This document shows, in pieces, positions 24,452-33,889 of a stretch of 35,289 nt of DNA. The stretch is taken from the IMG/VR virus record IMGVR_UViG_3300029319_000197, positions 1 to 35,289 of that record, one strand, 5' to 3'. The first letter of the stretch is position 1; each line of letters begins with the position of its first letter. The translations under genes and the position numbers were made by a program. This DNA is from a virus. The notes beneath the pieces are model-generated. The model was not told the DNA's origin. It saw nothing but the letters and a program-made list of their open reading frames with translations, and did no database searches.

Positions 24452-26434
24452 TTACTCCGCTGCAACTATATCTACAACCTCACAGGCATCTGCAGAACAA
24501 GCTAGTTCCCGGTTGCCATTGGTTGAATCTTCTGTTTCGAACACTTCAAGCCCTGACCAATCTATGTCGTCAGGTGTCTTGAGGTTTATCTCAGACCATT
24601 CGACAATACCGTCATCGTTGACGTTAGATACCTTCTGGTAGTTGCCCTTGTACTCTTCCTCAGTAATGTCCTGATATGGGGCTTGCTTATAGGTGTGGTC
24701 AGTGAACGGCAGGAAAGATATGCCACTGCACAGATCAAAGTTGTCGTACACCCATGCACCCACCTTGACCCACTCGTCCTCTTTGACACTGATAGTAACA
24801 GAGGGTTTGTGCTCACACCAGTGCAAAGCATACAGCTTCCACAGTTCAAGCTGATCGATAGCTGACATGTCGTTGCGACAGGTAGCACCGTGCGGCGAAC
24901 GTGTGATGAAACTGAACACGGTTGTGTTGTCTGGCTTCATAACGTCTGGCTCGTTGGGCACACCCTGATTAATTAGAAACTGTGTCAATGGGTCTTTGTT
25001 ATCACCCCGCACAGTTCGAACATAATAGGGGTTGTGTCTTGCGTGAATACCGCTGGCGGCATCGACGAGTTGCGATACAGTGCCAGATGGTTTGACGCAG
25101 GTGATAGCTGTAGATTGTTCTATGCCTATTTGATTTGCCACATATGCGTTTTGATCGATTGCCACCTGACGCATTTCAGTCAGCCAACGTACGGAGTCCT
25201 CTGTCTTGGATAGCACAGGATGATCCATGATGCCTGTGAGTGATACGCCCAGCAGTCGCTCTTCTTTGGTGTTCTTCTCCCAGACTTTGCGTAAATACTT
25301 AAAGTTGGTGAGAGTGCTTTGAAACGTGCCCAGTGTGGTTGCAAGACGAACCTTATGCTTGAGATCATCTAGACCATCCGTAGGACGAACAACCACCTCT
25401 GACAGGTTGCAAAACTGATAAGGGCGCAAGATAATCTCACTGCACGGGTTGCAACCAAAGTCGTGTTCAGGGTCACGTCGTCCGTTCTCAGCAACTTTCA
25501 TCTTAGCTGCTTCACGATTGAAGATGCCACGTTCTCCGCTCTTGCTGTCGTACAAAGACAGCCACTCTTTTAGAAACGTTCCAATGTCGGGTTTCTTGGA
25601 GTACGATACAGAGTTGTTAGCCAATGCTCTGTGCCCGTCGTTCTCCCACCAGTTACCAGACTTGGCGTGGGACATCTCCCTGTCAGAGAGATCAGATAAA
25701 CTAATCAGTGCAGAACGACGAACGCCACCTACGACAACGATCTCACCAACCTTACACATGATGTCGTGGCACTCAATTGCTTTGAGACGACGACCAGCGG
25801 CTCGTTTGAAGATGTCGATGCAAAAGTTAAATAACTCAAGTAGGGGTTCCGGTCCAGAAGCACGACCTCCCATAGTCTTCAGACGAACCCCGGAAGGGCG
25901 AACGGACGATACATCTATTGATGGGATCTGCCCAGCGTACAGAAGAGACAGCAGTTCACGGAACGCCCTAGCCCACCCACTACGACTGTCAGCGACGTGC
26001 ACAACAGTTGGGGACTCCTCAAAGTGTTCGTTCACGATTGGTAGCTTGCTCACTTGAGACTCCTCAACAGAGAAGCCCACACCTGTACCACACATAAGGA
26101 TATACATACATTCATCAAACGCACGAGGACTATCTACAGGCAGGTACGAGCAGTTATATCCCACAACGTTGTCCCGCTCTAAAGCAGATCCAGAAGTCAT
26201 CATAGCCCGCATAGATGGCATGATTTTCAAATCGAGAATAGCTTCCTCCAATTCTTCAGCAAACAATTCGTTAACGTCATACCCGTGCTCATTCTTAAGA
26301 TGGTCACACATAAAGTTCATGTAACGGCGCACAGTCTCTTCCCAAGTCTCTCTACGATTATGTTCGGGGAGCCAACGGGCATAACGCGATTTATGAATAA
26401 ATTGCTGGTAAATGGTGGGTAGCTGATTCGACAT
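24452..26434 (-). CDS. nrdJ: Adenosylcobalamin-dependent ribonucleotide reductase, class II monomeric
   Basis: A 660-residue reductase converting ribonucleotides (probably triphosphates) to deoxynucleotides for phage DNA synthesis, using a B12 radical. Key residues are visible: Cys95 in YNCSY, the finger-loop Asn329-Pro-Cys331-Ser-Glu333 (radical Cys and Glu), Cys342 in FCNLSEVV as redox partner, and the C-terminal Cys646-x4-Cys651 pair that passes electrons from thioredoxin. The length fits single-chain class II enzymes such as the Lactobacillus RTPR (about 740), slightly short. No intein is seen. RBS AGGAGAAG. It lies two bases after a DUF3310 gene, within the DNA-metabolism operon. Confidence 0.93.
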   Translation of the reverse strand: MSNQLPTIYQQFIHKSRYARWLPEHNRRETWEETVRRYMNFMCDHLKNEHGYDVNELFAEELEEAILDLKIMPSMRAMMTSGSALERDNVVGYNCSYLPVDSPRAFDECMYILMCGTGVGFSVEESQVSKLPIVNEHFEESPTVVHVADSRSGWARAFRELLSLLYAGQIPSIDVSSVRPSGVRLKTMGGRASGPEPLLELFNFCIDIFKRAAGRRLKAIECHDIMCKVGEIVVVGGVRRSALISLSDLSDREMSHAKSGNWWENDGHRALANNSVSYSKKPDIGTFLKEWLSLYDSKSGERGIFNREAAKMKVAENGRRDPEHDFGCNPCSEIILRPYQFCNLSEVVVRPTDGLDDLKHKVRLATTLGTFQSTLTNFKYLRKVWEKNTKEERLLGVSLTGIMDHPVLSKTEDSVRWLTEMRQVAIDQNAYVANQIGIEQSTAITCVKPSGTVSQLVDAASGIHARHNPYYVRTVRGDNKDPLTQFLINQGVPNEPDVMKPDNTTVFSFITRSPHGATCRNDMSAIDQLELWKLYALHWCEHKPSVTISVKEDEWVKVGAWVYDNFDLCSGISFLPFTDHTYKQAPYQDITEEEYKGNYQKVSNVNDDGIVEWSEINLKTPDDIDWSGLEVFETEDSTNGNRELACSADACEVVDIVAAE

Positions 26435-29501: not shown

Positions 29502-29530
29502 ATTGTAAAGTTATACAAGCTGGGTGTCAA
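29502..29530 (-). promoter_or_regulatory. Sigma70-like promoter TTGACA-17-TACAAT
   Basis: Minus-strand -35 TTGACA (29530-29525) and -10 TACAAT (29507-29502) with a 17-base spacer, located at the end of the polymerase gene. Predicted start near 29495, about 24 bases before the ATG of the putative ssDNA-binding gene. Confidence 0.65.
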
Positions 29531-31046
29531 GCCAATTATCACCTATTTTTAACTCAATATCAACAGGCATATCATAGTGTATGCCGTAACGTCTATGTGA
29601 TTCATCTTTGATAGATAACATAGCCTCCTCCATCATGTTGATTGCCTTACGTTCCTCGCCCGGATAGACATCCATGACTATGCTATCATGCACAGTATTA
29701 CATATAACACTGTTTATTTTGGACTGTCTTAGAAGTTGGCTCAAACGAATCAAAGCAAGGGGTAGCAAGTCTCCTGTAGCAAAACCCTGTACAGGATAGT
29801 TGCAGATGGCGGTGCGGTTTGTCGCAGTGCCCCACTTTGTCCACTTGGTTCCGGGAAAATGGTATTGCCTACCAGAGGGCAACGTTATGTATCCTTTATC
29901 TACGGCTTGGCGTTGCATGTCATCCTGCCACTCTGTCACAGCCGCATACTTATCTTTGAAGGCGTTGTAGTATCTTCTCTGGGAATCAGTGCCTGTTACA
30001 CCACCATACAGAGGCTTGAAGGTGTGTGCCTTTGCTTCCTGTCGGCTACAGCCTATGATCTCTGCAGTGTAGTTATGAACGTCAGTGCCAGACCTGACAT
30101 CGTTGTAGATGGCTTCGTCGCTTGATAAGAACCCTGCCACACGGAACTCTAGCTGACTATAGTCCCCCTCAAGTATCTTACCGCCTTCCCAGCGGCTTGT
30201 AACAACTTTGCGAATGACGAACGTAGAGCCTCGCGGCATGTTTTGAAAATTTGGGTTTCTCGAAGATAGTCTTCCAGTAGCAGTAACACACTGCATAAAC
30301 TCAGGATGAATAAAATCATCATCATCAAGATTGTTGAGCATACCGTCCACAAAATTAGAAAGATAAGTTCGAATAGCAGAGTATCGGATATACGCCTCCA
30401 CAAATTCTTTAGCCTCCCCGGACAACTCACTAAGACGTTGCTCAAGCGTTTCCTTGTCTGTTTTAAATCCACCTGCCGCAACGTCAGCGACTCCTCTAGG
30501 GCTGATTTTAAATCCTGCAGTCTTACCAGTATCGACATACGTTATTCCTTTTCCGTTACACGTTGAACAAACACGCTTGGCCTTACTTATGCTGCCATCT
30601 TTACGAACAAATGAAACTCGTCCCGTGCCCTCACATTGCATACACTGAGAGCCAATCGTACGTCGTATCACAGTTGTATTATCGCTAATAGCATGTTTGA
30701 ACTCGCTTTGCTTCATGCGAGTACGCATCTTCTGTTTCTTGGTAGCCCCTCGTTGCTCAGTGCCTAGATTGAAAAGCGTCTTCCATACCTGTTTGTTATT
30801 TACCTTACGAGAATAGAACAGGACAGAACGATCATCAGGGCTATCAAGGTTGAAAGGGGTATCACCCATTGCGGTTTGAGCCATGCTTCTGAGCTTGAGT
30901 CGTAGTTCCTCTTGTTCATTTTCAAAGTCCTCCTTCAATTGTATCAGTGCTTGTTTGTCTATCTTGATGCCAGCGCGTTCGATGTCACACAGAACGTCTG
31001 TCATCTCACAGGACATAAGTAGTGTGGACTGTAAACTAGAGCTCAT
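29511..31046 (-). CDS. DNA polymerase family A, polymerase domain with DnaJ-like zinc finger
   Basis: A 511-residue polymerase without its own proofreading domain. After a helical start (CDIERAGIKIDKQAL) it has a zinc finger of two CxxCxGxG motifs (Cys135/138 and Cys160/163), like half of the DnaJ central domain. The palm and fingers follow: motif A EGDYSQLEFR with Asp295; motif B Arg335-x3-Lys339-x3-Phe343-x3-Tyr347-Gly; motif C VHDS with Asp454. Phe343 aligns with E. coli Pol I Phe762. The start ATG (31046) overlaps the end of the exonuclease gene by 11 bases; the 28 residues in frame before it lie inside that gene. A polymerase with inserted partial DnaJ domain is known in HMO-2011-type phages. 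Confidence 0.92.
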   Translation of the reverse strand: MSSSLQSTLLMSCEMTDVLCDIERAGIKIDKQALIQLKEDFENEQEELRLKLRSMAQTAMGDTPFNLDSPDDRSVLFYSRKVNNKQVWKTLFNLGTEQRGATKKQKMRTRMKQSEFKHAISDNTTVIRRTIGSQCMQCEGTGRVSFVRKDGSISKAKRVCSTCNGKGITYVDTGKTAGFKISPRGVADVAAGGFKTDKETLEQRLSELSGEAKEFVEAYIRYSAIRTYLSNFVDGMLNNLDDDDFIHPEFMQCVTATGRLSSRNPNFQNMPRGSTFVIRKVVTSRWEGGKILEGDYSQLEFRVAGFLSSDEAIYNDVRSGTDVHNYTAEIIGCSRQEAKAHTFKPLYGGVTGTDSQRRYYNAFKDKYAAVTEWQDDMQRQAVDKGYITLPSGRQYHFPGTKWTKWGTATNRTAICNYPVQGFATGDLLPLALIRLSQLLRQSKINSVICNTVHDSIVMDVYPGEERKAINMMEEAMLSIKDESHRRYGIHYDMPVDIELKIGDNWLDTQLV

Positions 31047-31590
31047 GGTACATCCTCTCAAGCGTTGTGCCAAAGGCTTCTGCCTGTTTGATAGCGATAC
31101 GTTCCGTAACAAGAACGTCTTCCTTACCATACTCTTCTACAATGTCGTAGGGTATTTTGTCAAACGTAATACCGTCATCCAGATAAGGTTGAACGAGATC
31201 TTTCTTCTTGGTGCCCACGTCGTATTTCTCAGCGAGAGCGGCAAGACTCAGAGGCCAACGCCGGGAACCAGCTAGGATGTACTCTCCAACCATCGTGTCA
31301 TACAGCTTGCCCTCGTAAGACCAACCGCACTCACGCAACCACATCAGGTCAAACTTGATGTTGTGACCAATCAACAGATCGCACCACTCAAGAGCAGAAC
31401 GAACTTGTTCGAACCCGCCAGCAGTCGGTGTTTCCTTTTCGTGGTGAAAGCAGAGGTAGTCAACACCTACATCAGTTATGCGTTTGTAGCCGACACTAAC
31501 CAGAAGATTTTTGAAGAACGGAGAGGGTGTCCAAGAGCCGTTTGGCTTTTTGGTTGTGGTAGTTTCCACGTCAAGAGTCACTATGTTCAT
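31036..31590 (-). CDS. 3'-5' exonuclease (DnaQ-like) of the replicative polymerase, separate gene
   Basis: A 184-residue protein with all three exonuclease motifs: Exo I DVE (Asp7, Glu9), Exo II HNIKFD (Asn77, Asp81) and Exo III YGKED (Tyr154, Asp158). It corresponds to the N-terminal proofreading domain that T7-like polymerases carry in one chain. Here it ends with TAG just inside the start of the polymerase gene, in another frame. It has a strong RBS (GGAGGAG) and overlaps the upstream nuclease by 20 bases. The two proteins probably act together. A frameshift splitting one gene is the alternative. Confidence 0.9.
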   Translation of the reverse strand: MNIVTLDVETTTTKKPNGSWTPSPFFKNLLVSVGYKRITDVGVDYLCFHHEKETPTAGGFEQVRSALEWCDLLIGHNIKFDLMWLRECGWSYEGKLYDTMVGEYILAGSRRWPLSLAALAEKYDVGTKKKDLVQPYLDDGITFDKIPYDIVEEYGKEDVLVTERIAIKQAEAFGTTLERMYHEL

Positions 31591-31864
31591 TGAGCTCCTC
31601 CATGTTCACTCTGTCCACCATGTAGATTTCAACGCCTATCTTTTTCTGGCGAGGTTTGGCTATGCGATTTATCAGCGTACCATCCTTACGATACGATTTT
31701 GTTTTTACATCAAAGAAACGGGTCTCTCCGGTTTCAGGATTAACAGCCACGAGATCTATCAGGCCGTTACCACTCAAGTTGTGAAAGACATGCCAACCTT
31801 GTTTAATTAGTTGTGCGGCAGCAATCATCTCGCTAAGTGCACCCCTTGCATGTTTGATATCCAT
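31571..31864 (-). CDS. PD-(D/E)XK nuclease, small resolvase-like
   Basis: A 97-residue nuclease beginning MDIKHARGALSEMIAAAQLIKQGW. Glu12, Asp37 (GLIDLVAV) and Asp52-x-Lys54 (FFDVKTK) form the metal-binding core of the PD-(D/E)XK group, as in small resolvases and the PDDEXK_5 type. It lies between the helicase (TAATG overlap) and the exonuclease, so it is part of the replication set. Substrate unknown. Confidence 0.8.
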   Translation of the reverse strand: MDIKHARGALSEMIAAAQLIKQGWHVFHNLSGNGLIDLVAVNPETGETRFFDVKTKSYRKDGTLINRIAKPRQKKIGVEIYMVDRVNMEELNEHSDS

Positions 31865-33096
31865 TAGTAGTAGAACCCCCGTTGAACGTCTATGTTTGCG
31901 TTTATCATGCCGTGATATCCGTTGACCTTGTTTTTAGATACACAGAGATAACGCATGTAGTTGTCGTCATCAACATCTCCGGTTCTGCCTATGCCAATAA
32001 TGACATCAGCCTCACCTGCTTTACCTGTCCGACTATTGTCCATCATGGAATAATCGATGTTCATACGATTGTGTGCCTCATAGTTTGCCTGAGACACAGC
32101 CCAAAACAACAGTCCGTTACGTTTGGCTATCTCACGTGCCTTGATGTATATCTCTTTGAGGCGTTCATCACCACGCCCAAAGTCTCCGTTCACGCGAAAC
32201 TTATCAAGCTGGTCAGCAAACACGATGTCTGGATCAGACAGCTTACAGTATTGATCAAGCTCTTCGACAGACGAGCCAACTGAATCCACCACAGTGAGAT
32301 ACGGTTTTATATCCTGCACGTACTTTTCGTTGATCACAGACTTATCTTGCACCATCTCCTGTTTTGTCAGCTTGTAATAGCTTTGAATAATTCTCAGCTT
32401 TATCTTGGCGGCGGGCTCTTCGTTTGCCCAATACGCAACCCTGTTCTTGTTCTTGATGTAGGAAGCACAAAGATGTGCACAGAATGTTGTCTTGCCTGTT
32501 TCTGGTCGGGCAAAGATTATGCCCAGATTACCACGAGACATACCCGGAAGGTTGTCTTTGATTATGTTGAGGTCGAACGGGAAGTCCACACCTCTTTCTT
32601 CGCTCTCTATAAGTTGCATGAAATCATCCTCAAATATGGTGTAGGTCTCACTGCCTTTAATGCTGTGCTCCGACACTCTGTCTAGTATGCTTTTGATTGG
32701 TGTAAAGTCGGTGGAGTCGCCAGTGTATATGTCAATGGCTCGTTCACCAATAATACGTGCTTGGTCTCTTGCCCAGAACTCTTCTACAATCTTACGGTGT
32801 AAATCAACGTTCTGTTGCTCTGATGGGTCACGCATCAAATTGAACATGTCAGCCAAGTCCTCTCGACTTGACTTGGTTAGTGCAGGGTTGGATGTTAGCA
32901 ACATTGAATGAACTTCCCCTGCGGTAAGGTTCGTGGTTGCAACGTCGTGACAGTTTAGAATTGTTCTAAACACTGTCTTGGACAAACCTTCGAACATGTC
33001 TTCTGACAGTATGTGCTTCACACCAGAGTAGAAGTCGCGGTGCAAAATGAATTGCAGAATCTGTTGTTCAATCGGTTTTTCTTCTGATGAACTCAT
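31864..33096 (-). CDS. Replicative DNA helicase, DnaB/T7 gp4-helicase-like
   Basis: A 410-residue RecA-fold helicase that should unwind DNA ahead of the polymerase. The N-terminal about 150 residues are helical (DnaB N-domain-like). Walker A is ARPETGKT (196-203, Lys202 and Thr203); Walker B is near 291-295 (IVFAD); a Gln336 motif (WAVSQANYE) and a SKNKVNG segment (387-393) complete the core. Primase is a separate gene here. The ATG at 33096 overlaps the primase gene end by 29 bases, so both are likely co-translated. Confidence 0.9.
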   Translation of the reverse strand: MSSSEEKPIEQQILQFILHRDFYSGVKHILSEDMFEGLSKTVFRTILNCHDVATTNLTAGEVHSMLLTSNPALTKSSREDLADMFNLMRDPSEQQNVDLHRKIVEEFWARDQARIIGERAIDIYTGDSTDFTPIKSILDRVSEHSIKGSETYTIFEDDFMQLIESEERGVDFPFDLNIIKDNLPGMSRGNLGIIFARPETGKTTFCAHLCASYIKNKNRVAYWANEEPAAKIKLRIIQSYYKLTKQEMVQDKSVINEKYVQDIKPYLTVVDSVGSSVEELDQYCKLSDPDIVFADQLDKFRVNGDFGRGDERLKEIYIKAREIAKRNGLLFWAVSQANYEAHNRMNIDYSMMDNSRTGKAGEADVIIGIGRTGDVDDDNYMRYLCVSKNKVNGYHGMINANIDVQRGFYY

Positions 33097-33853
33097 TCAG
33101 TCTTTCCCTTTCCATGTTTTTCAAATCATCTTCAAGAATAAGCATCCGGACATTCAGGTGAGGTTTGAGTGTCTGGACAGTTTTCAAGCCTAGCTTGGTT
33201 GCGTCCTTATCTAACGCAACGTACACGGTGTCGAACTTTTTGAGTTGGACTATGTGTTCTTTTAACAAAGACGTACCCAGCATGGCAACACCAGTTATCA
33301 TGTGGCTTACACATGAGGCTGACGCACAGTCCTCAACCAGCACAGCATTACGAGCGTCTCCTGCAGTGAATAGCTGTTTTGATTTACCGTATCTGTACCA
33401 TTTGGGTTTGGCTTTTGCAAGGGTTCGCCCAACAGCATCTACGGTTTTCGCACCGTCTCGAATCAAAAACACCGCACGGTTCAATCTCTGGTCATACATG
33501 AGACGAACGGTACGGTGTGAATAAGCATCGAACACATTGACATCTTTCATGTAACGCATAGCTGCATCACTTCGGGATATGTCTACAAATGTGTCTGGAA
33601 TTTGAAATGAATTCAAAGTCTTATCTGGTTCTTCGTAACGGTTACGAGTACGCAGAGGCGGAGGGTCGGCAGAAAGCCGAACCCGGAGCCGACCCTTTAC
33701 ATTGCAATCAGCGTGAAAGCATTTGAACATGATATTCATCCCGTCATTGAAGGCGGCAAATGAATTCTTGTGTCCGCAAGATGGACAATCAGATCGATAT
33801 CGTGTACCACCCTGAATGTTCAAGGACTCAATGTAGTCGTGCATCATGCTCAT
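33068..33853 (-). CDS. DNA primase, zinc-finger plus TOPRIM
   Basis: A 261-residue T7-type primase. It has an N-terminal zinc-binding motif CPSC...CFHADC (Cys23, 26, 45 and 50), a linker rich in Pro and Arg, and a TOPRIM domain with Glu174 in VLVEDCASAS and Asp215/Asp217 in VALDKDATK. It should lay down primers for lagging-strand synthesis. In T7 it is fused to the helicase, here it is not. The start is uncertain: ATG 33853 (used), ATG 33847 or 33844, or upstream ATG 33865 or TTG 33889; none has a clear RBS. A promoter just upstream suggests that the mRNA starts near 33854. Confidence 0.88.
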   Translation of the reverse strand: MSMMHDYIESLNIQGGTRYRSDCPSCGHKNSFAAFNDGMNIMFKCFHADCNVKGRLRVRLSADPPPLRTRNRYEEPDKTLNSFQIPDTFVDISRSDAAMRYMKDVNVFDAYSHRTVRLMYDQRLNRAVFLIRDGAKTVDAVGRTLAKAKPKWYRYGKSKQLFTAGDARNAVLVEDCASASCVSHMITGVAMLGTSLLKEHIVQLKKFDTVYVALDKDATKLGLKTVQTLKPHLNVRMLILEDDLKNMERERLNEFIRRKTD

Positions 33854-33860
33854 GGTGACG

Positions 33861-33889
33861 AGCATATAGACAAACGAATTCTGTGTCAA
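33861..33889 (-). promoter_or_regulatory. Leftward promoter of the replication module, TTGACA-17-TATGCT
   Basis: On the minus strand a perfect -35 TTGACA (33889-33884) and a -10 TATGCT (33866-33861) are separated by 17 bases. The predicted start is near 33854, at or next to the primase ATG, implying a leaderless or very short leader mRNA unless transcription begins further upstream. The -35 box forms an inverted pair with that of the rightward promoter. Confidence 0.55.

What the first reader, a model, noticed from the sequence alone, without database searches (positions are those of the whole stretch)
29511..31590. Replicative polymerase split into overlapping exonuclease and polymerase genes
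The 3'-5' exonuclease (184 aa, complete Exo I-III motifs) and the polymerase part (511 aa, motifs A-C) lie in different frames with an 11-base overlap. In T7 and, to my knowledge, in HMO-2011-type phages they are one chain. The exonuclease has its own strong RBS and the polymerase an ATG at the overlap. This may be a true gene fission with re-association of subunits, a programmed frameshift, or a sequence error.
Basis: partly seen in the sequence, partly recalled or inferred. Interest (0 to 1): 0.7.

Follow-up and report, generated by a model that had tools for sequence, protein, structure and literature searches.

The report
Phage DNA polymerase split in two
A large group of uncultured marine phages carries the proofreading part and the DNA-building part of its replication enzyme as two separate, slightly overlapping genes instead of one; the split is old, shared by the whole group and not a sequencing error, so these phages must either reassemble the enzyme from two proteins or proofread with a detached partner.

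Summary
A complete 3'-5' exonuclease (184 aa, 31036-31590, minus strand) and the rest of a family A DNA polymerase (511 aa, 29511-31046) lie in different frames with an 11-base overlap. Sequence error and programmed frameshifting are rejected. Among 294 distinct related polymerase genes from IMG/VR, 193 are split: 174 overlapping or abutting, 19 with 205-1532 bases between the genes. Trees put all of them in one clade, with no single-chain member in it and no split outside it. All 47 pol starts tested carry a Shine-Dalgarno core, against 14% of control ATGs. Both genes are under strong purifying selection; all 165 complete exonucleases keep Exo I-III and all 193 polymerases keep motifs A-C. 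Models of the two chains map onto Klenow 349-530 and 517-928: the cut is at the exo/pol domain boundary. HMO-2011, HTVC033P and CRP isolates have one chain. This is an ancient gene fission in an uncultured branch of HMO-2011-type phages. Re-association of the two proteins is likely but inferred. Split phage polymerases are known (T4-like gp43A/B, Fri1, ICP2/MEP401); I found no report of a clade-wide fission at this boundary without a mobile element.

The parts
31036..31590 (-). Stand-alone 3'-5' exonuclease gene (184 aa), the former N-terminal domain of the polymerase
   Evidence: Pfam DNA_pol_A_exo1 E 1.9e-8; Exo I-III invariant; model pLDDT 93.6 aligned to Klenow 349-530, Z 17.8
29511..31046 (-). 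Family A DNA polymerase gene without exonuclease domain (511 aa)
   Evidence: Pfam DNA_pol_A E 9.2e-54; motifs A-C; model pLDDT 88.3 aligned to Klenow 517-928, Z 29.1
31036..31046 (-). 11-base overlap ATGAGCTCTAG: polymerase start and exonuclease stop
   Evidence: the same 11-nt overlap in 18 distinct loci
31053..31057 (-). Shine-Dalgarno GAGGA of the polymerase gene, 6 nt before its ATG, inside exonuclease codons
   Evidence: SD core at 47 of 47 dereplicated split loci, 14% of control ATGs
31595..31601 (-). Shine-Dalgarno GGAGGAG of the exonuclease gene, 4 nt before its ATG
   Evidence: read directly
30558..30644 (-). DnaJ-type zinc finger insert of the polymerase (Cys135, 138, 160, 163), marker of HMO-2011-type polymerases
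   Evidence: Pfam DnaJ_CXXCXGXG E 2.3e-4, below the gathering score; four Cys invariant
31864..33096 (-). DnaB-like replicative helicase (neighbour in the same gene run)
33068..33889 (-). DNA primase (neighbour in the same gene run)
   Evidence: PHROG 47 E 1.3e-20

Best explanation
This is an ancient, stable gene fission. In the ancestor of one branch of HMO-2011-type phages the single family A polymerase gene was cut in the linker between the exonuclease and polymerase domains. The polymerase half has its own start codon and a Shine-Dalgarno site written inside the exonuclease C-terminal codons. Each half is now translated separately, the polymerase probably coupled to the exonuclease through the overlap. 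The exonuclease most likely docks on the polymerase in trans, in about the place the fused domain holds in Klenow or T7 polymerase, and supplies proofreading; one sub-branch then took small genes into the gap. Shown: the split, its clade-wide conservation, the start signals, purifying selection and the position of the cut. Inferred: translational coupling, docking (about 0.75) and proofreading in trans. The stated confidence is for the fission into two separately translated active proteins; docking is less certain.
For: 193 of 294 distinct polymerase genes are split, all in one clade with no single-chain member inside it. The clade is recovered in polymerase trees (support 0.98) and in an exonuclease tree (0.92). 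19 loci have 205-1532 nt between the genes. SD core at 47/47 polymerase starts against 14% of control ATGs. Median dN/dS 0.05 for exo and 0.04 for pol. Catalytic motifs intact in 165/165 exo and 193/193 pol. The two models map to Klenow 349-530 and 517-928, together the whole Klenow fold. Both genes keep the order helicase-exo-pol and stay neighbours. Precedent for re-association: split gp43A/gp43B of Aeromonas phage 25 co-purify with polymerase activity (PMC2988022).
Against: No protein data. Exo and pol distance matrices correlate no better than either does with the helicase in split loci, and the two trees show some well-supported conflicts, so co-evolution gives no positive sign of a partnership. 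Support for excluding the L116 group from the split clade is weak in the larger polymerase tree (0.43).
Confidence: 0.93

Rival explanations
1. The fission is real, but the exonuclease no longer works with this polymerase. It has become an independent nuclease for repair or nucleotide recycling, and the polymerase replicates without proofreading.
For: No direct evidence of contact; exo-pol distance correlation is no higher than exo-helicase. Pfam-A type polymerases whose exonuclease is inactive or absent are common (general knowledge: Taq, Bst).
Against: The two genes stay neighbours and in order in every split locus with both, also when small genes lie between; exo is under purifying selection about as strong as pol and keeps all catalytic residues.
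Confidence: 0.2
2. Programmed frameshift: ribosomes shift at the overlap and make a full-length fused polymerase as well as the short exonuclease.
For: The polymerase frame has the same relation to the exonuclease frame in all overlapping loci (all overlaps are 2 modulo 3).
Against: 19 loci have 205-1532 nt between the genes; no conserved slippery site; start codon with SD in all tested loci; the constant frame relation is expected from descent.
Confidence: 0.03
3. Sequencing or assembly error in one contig.
For: None beyond the general possibility.
Against: The same 11-nt overlap is in 18 distinct loci, and the split in 193, from many metagenomes.
Confidence: 0.005
4. The single-chain L116 group is a re-fusion inside the split clade, so fission is reversible.
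For: The group branches next to the split clade, and its exclusion has weak support in the larger polymerase tree (0.43).
Against: The smaller polymerase tree (0.98) and the exonuclease tree (0.92) keep single-chain genes outside the split clade, and all deeper outgroups are single-chain, so one fission suffices.
Confidence: 0.1

Closest known systems
Single-chain HMO-2011-type DNA polymerase (HMO-2011, HTVC033P, CRP phages)
   Same: Homologous along the whole length (pol 35-47% identity to isolates), same order helicase-polymerase, same DnaJ-type zinc finger insert
   Different: Exonuclease and polymerase are one protein there, two separately translated proteins here
Split PolA of Acinetobacter phage Fri1 (Friunavirus)
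   Same: Exonuclease-bearing and polymerase-bearing halves of a phage family A polymerase in separate genes
   Different: An HNH endonuclease gene lies between the halves; the first half (284 aa) runs about 100 residues past the exonuclease match; the record annotates it as a gene interrupted by an HNH endonuclease
Split polymerase of Zobellviridae phages ICP2 and MEP401/402
   Same: Phage family A polymerase encoded by two genes, conserved in relatives (PMC10580990)
   Different: Cut inside the palm, just after TGRLSSxxPNxQN, so neither half has a complete polymerase; no DnaJ insert reported; MEP401 has a small ORF between and an intron was suspected
Split gp43A/gp43B of Aeromonas phages 25 and 44RR (T4-like)
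   Same: Phage replicative polymerase in two genes; the two products of phage 25 co-purify and polymerise (PMC2988022)
   Different: Family B polymerase; associated with a seg homing endonuclease or an untranslated insert
PhiKZ-like jumbo phage family B polymerases
   Same: 3'-5' exonuclease encoded by a separate gene and proposed to associate as a stand-alone protein (PMC7824862)
   Different: Divergent family B enzyme; exonuclease encoded elsewhere in the genome; not a fission between neighbouring genes

Membership tests
HMO-2011-type phages | Family A polymerase with a DnaJ-type domain holding two CXXC-type zinc motifs | tested here: met
   Two CxxC pairs in 193/193 split polymerases; Pfam DnaJ_CXXCXGXG E 2.3e-4, below gathering score
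HMO-2011-type phages | That domain between exonuclease and polymerase domains of one protein (PMC9038755) | tested here: not met
   Exonuclease is a separate gene in the window and in 193 distinct loci
HMO-2011-type phages | HMO-2011-like terminase large subunit and capsid genes | tested here: inconclusive
   The window is partial and lacks them; split-clade contigs L004, L014, L040, L051, L076 have terminase at 53-55% and the head-tail adaptor at 49-50% identity, and four of the five a coat protein match
Family A DNA polymerase | Motifs A, B and C and the Pol I fold | tested here: met
   Pfam E 9.2e-54; Klenow Z 29.1; motif C is HDS, not HDE
DEDDy 3'-5' exonuclease of family A polymerases | Exo I DxE, Exo II NxxxD, Exo III YxxxD | tested here: met
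   165 of 165
DEDDy 3'-5' exonuclease of family A polymerases | Proofreads for the polymerase | not testable with these tools
   Needs biochemistry
Split phage polymerase made by a homing endonuclease or intron | Mobile element between or in the halves | tested here: not met
   Genes overlap in 173 loci; ten ORFs from the gaps of separated loci give no homing endonuclease match. An element lost long ago is not excluded
Programmed frameshift polymerase gene | Conserved slippery site with overlapping frames in all members | tested here: not met
   No conserved site; genes up to 1.5 kb apart

The most novel reading that the evidence does not exclude
A lineage of marine phages has turned its family A polymerase into a true two-subunit replicase with a detachable proofreading subunit, comparable in role to epsilon beside alpha in bacterial Pol III. 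Proofreading strength could then be set by subunit ratio or by separate evolution of the exonuclease.
Probability: 0.3. Interest if true: 0.72.

Novelty: new variant of a known kind. Interest (0 to 1): 0.52.

Why it matters
Exonuclease and polymerase domains of family A enzymes are normally one chain, and proofreading is thought to depend on moving the primer end between sites on that chain. A natural, ancient fission exactly at the domain boundary, kept in a large phage clade, gives a testable system for whether proofreading works in trans in family A enzymes and how a replicase becomes multi-subunit. It also has a practical side: surveys that use full-length DNA polymerase as the marker of HMO-2011-type phages, a dominant marine group, would probably miss this branch (inference from the length and coverage filters described in PMC9038755).

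Tried and rejected
Frameshift: no conserved slippery site and separated genes. Sequence error: many independent contigs. Homing endonuclease or intron between the genes: ten ORFs from the gaps of the separated group match only weak HTH/GcrA, sigma-70 region 4 or DNA-binding models, or nothing. Co-evolution of exo and pol as a sign of partnership: inconclusive. Cultured phage with this split: none in the phage collection; the best isolates are single-chain at 47% or less. Tips L118 and L122, labelled split in the first tree, are artefacts of genes running off the contig; they are single-chain. Promoter and terminator scans around the genes gave no more sites than shuffles. Literature searches for an exo|pol fission in HMO-2011-type phages found none; the library holds only open-licence papers, so absence there is weak evidence.

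Full report
Observation. The window is a whole 35,289-base virus record of IMG/VR. On the minus strand an exonuclease gene (31590 to 31036, 184 aa) and a polymerase gene (31046 to 29511, 511 aa) overlap by 11 bases, ATGAGCTCTAG, in different frames. The exonuclease carries DxE, NxxxD and YxxxD motifs; the polymerase carries motifs A, B and C and a DnaJ-type zinc finger. The gene order is primase, helicase, a small nuclease-like gene, exonuclease, polymerase.

Relatives. Cultured relatives HTVC033P, HMO-2011, CRP-1, CRP-3 and CRP-738 have one chain. Scans of IMG/VR with the polymerase, the exonuclease, a single-chain relative and three further polymerases of the clade gave several hundred loci. 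After removal of identical polymerase genes there are 294 distinct genes: 174 split with overlapping or abutting genes, 19 split with 205-1532 nt between the genes, 91 single-chain, and 10 with no exonuclease on the contig. In the polymerase tree no single-chain gene falls inside the split clade and no split gene outside it. The clade of split genes plus the three-member single-chain L116 group has support 0.98. The split clade alone has support 0.98 in the smaller polymerase tree, 0.43 in the larger and 0.92 in an exonuclease tree. The simplest history is one fission.

The junction. Overlaps are 41 (72 loci), 35 (51), 11 (18), 29 (15), 68 (14), 38 (2) and 23 (1) nt, measured from the codon aligned to polymerase residue 1; all are 2 modulo 3, the same frame relation, as expected from descent. 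In one locus (L343) the exonuclease stop and polymerase start meet as ATGA. The separated loci, with their closest partial relatives and L343, form a nested clade (support 0.954); in the eight loci examined small ORFs lie between the genes. Of ten such ORFs scanned, several give weak HTH/GcrA-like or DNA-binding matches and none a homing endonuclease. In 47 of 47 dereplicated split loci a Shine-Dalgarno core precedes the polymerase start, against 14% of 1476 other ATGs in these genes. In the window it is GAGGA at 31057-31053, written within exonuclease codons. No slippery site is conserved.

Selection and structure. Median pairwise dN/dS in the window's close group is 0.05 for the exonuclease and 0.04 for the polymerase; several pairs are saturated at synonymous sites, so these are rough. 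All 165 complete exonucleases keep Exo I-III, and all 193 polymerases keep motifs A-C and both CxxC pairs. Each protein is predicted to fold on its own (pLDDT 93.6 and 88.3). The exonuclease model aligns to Klenow 349-530 (1kfs, Z 17.8, rmsd 3.0, 167 residues) and the polymerase model to Klenow 517-928 (1kfs, Z 29.1, rmsd 2.8, 376 residues), so the cut is at the known exo/pol domain boundary.

Mechanism. Shown: separate genes, separate start signals, conservation and the position of the cut. Inferred: the two proteins are made in a coupled way and dock to form a proofreading replicase. The precedent is gp43A/gp43B of Aeromonas phage 25, which co-purify and polymerise (PMC2988022). The main rival is that the exonuclease now works independently and the polymerase does not proofread. 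Distance correlations do not decide this, and exo and pol trees show some conflict.

What is known. Split phage polymerases exist. Fri1 has an HNH gene between an exonuclease-bearing and a polymerase-bearing half. ICP2 and MEP401 are cut inside the palm (PMC10580990). HMO-2011-type phages are described as having exonuclease, DnaJ and polymerase domains in one protein (PMC9038755); that survey's filters (at least 80% alignment length for genome retrieval; over 540 aa for the polymerase tree) would probably remove a 511-aa split polymerase. Split-clade genomes carry HMO-2011-like terminase and adaptor and, in four of the five longest, a coat protein match, so this looks like a branch of that group. 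I found no description of this fission, within an open-licence library only.

Verdict. Real, not an artefact, and a new variant of a known kind. Interest is moderate: a specialist would find a clade-wide exo|pol fission notable, but split phage polymerases have precedents and the functional consequence is untested.

Noticed in passing
window 29511-31046, polymerase residues 452-455: Motif C reads VHDS in place of the usual VHDE, in 193 of 193 split polymerases and also in the single-chain relatives of the alignment. The usual catalytic-site Glu is replaced by Ser in the whole group.
   Followed up: partly
window 31571-31864: A 97-aa UPF0102/PD-(D/E)XK-like gene sits between helicase and exonuclease only in the window's own sub-branch (9 dereplicated loci), overlapping the exonuclease start by 20 nt.
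   Followed up: partly
L022, L031, L066, L081, between exo and pol: Small ORFs between the split genes include ~100-aa proteins with weak GcrA/HTH or D5-regulator-like matches; their role is unknown.
   Followed up: partly
L160 2176-4269 (ICP2_2013_A_Haiti) and L161 3501-5611 (MEP401): The two Zobellviridae polymerases are cut at nearly the same place in the palm, just after TGRLSSxxPNxQN, which suggests a shared, older split rather than a recent intron.
   Followed up: partly
G002 (contig of L014) 34520-36637: The head-tail adaptor gene of this split-clade contig shows one in-frame TGA; sequence error or a real interruption.
   Followed up: no
window 24452-26434: 660-aa ribonucleotide reductase gene (phrog_367) on the minus strand. 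The contig has no match to HMO-2011 terminase, adaptor or coat protein, so it is a partial genome.
   Followed up: no
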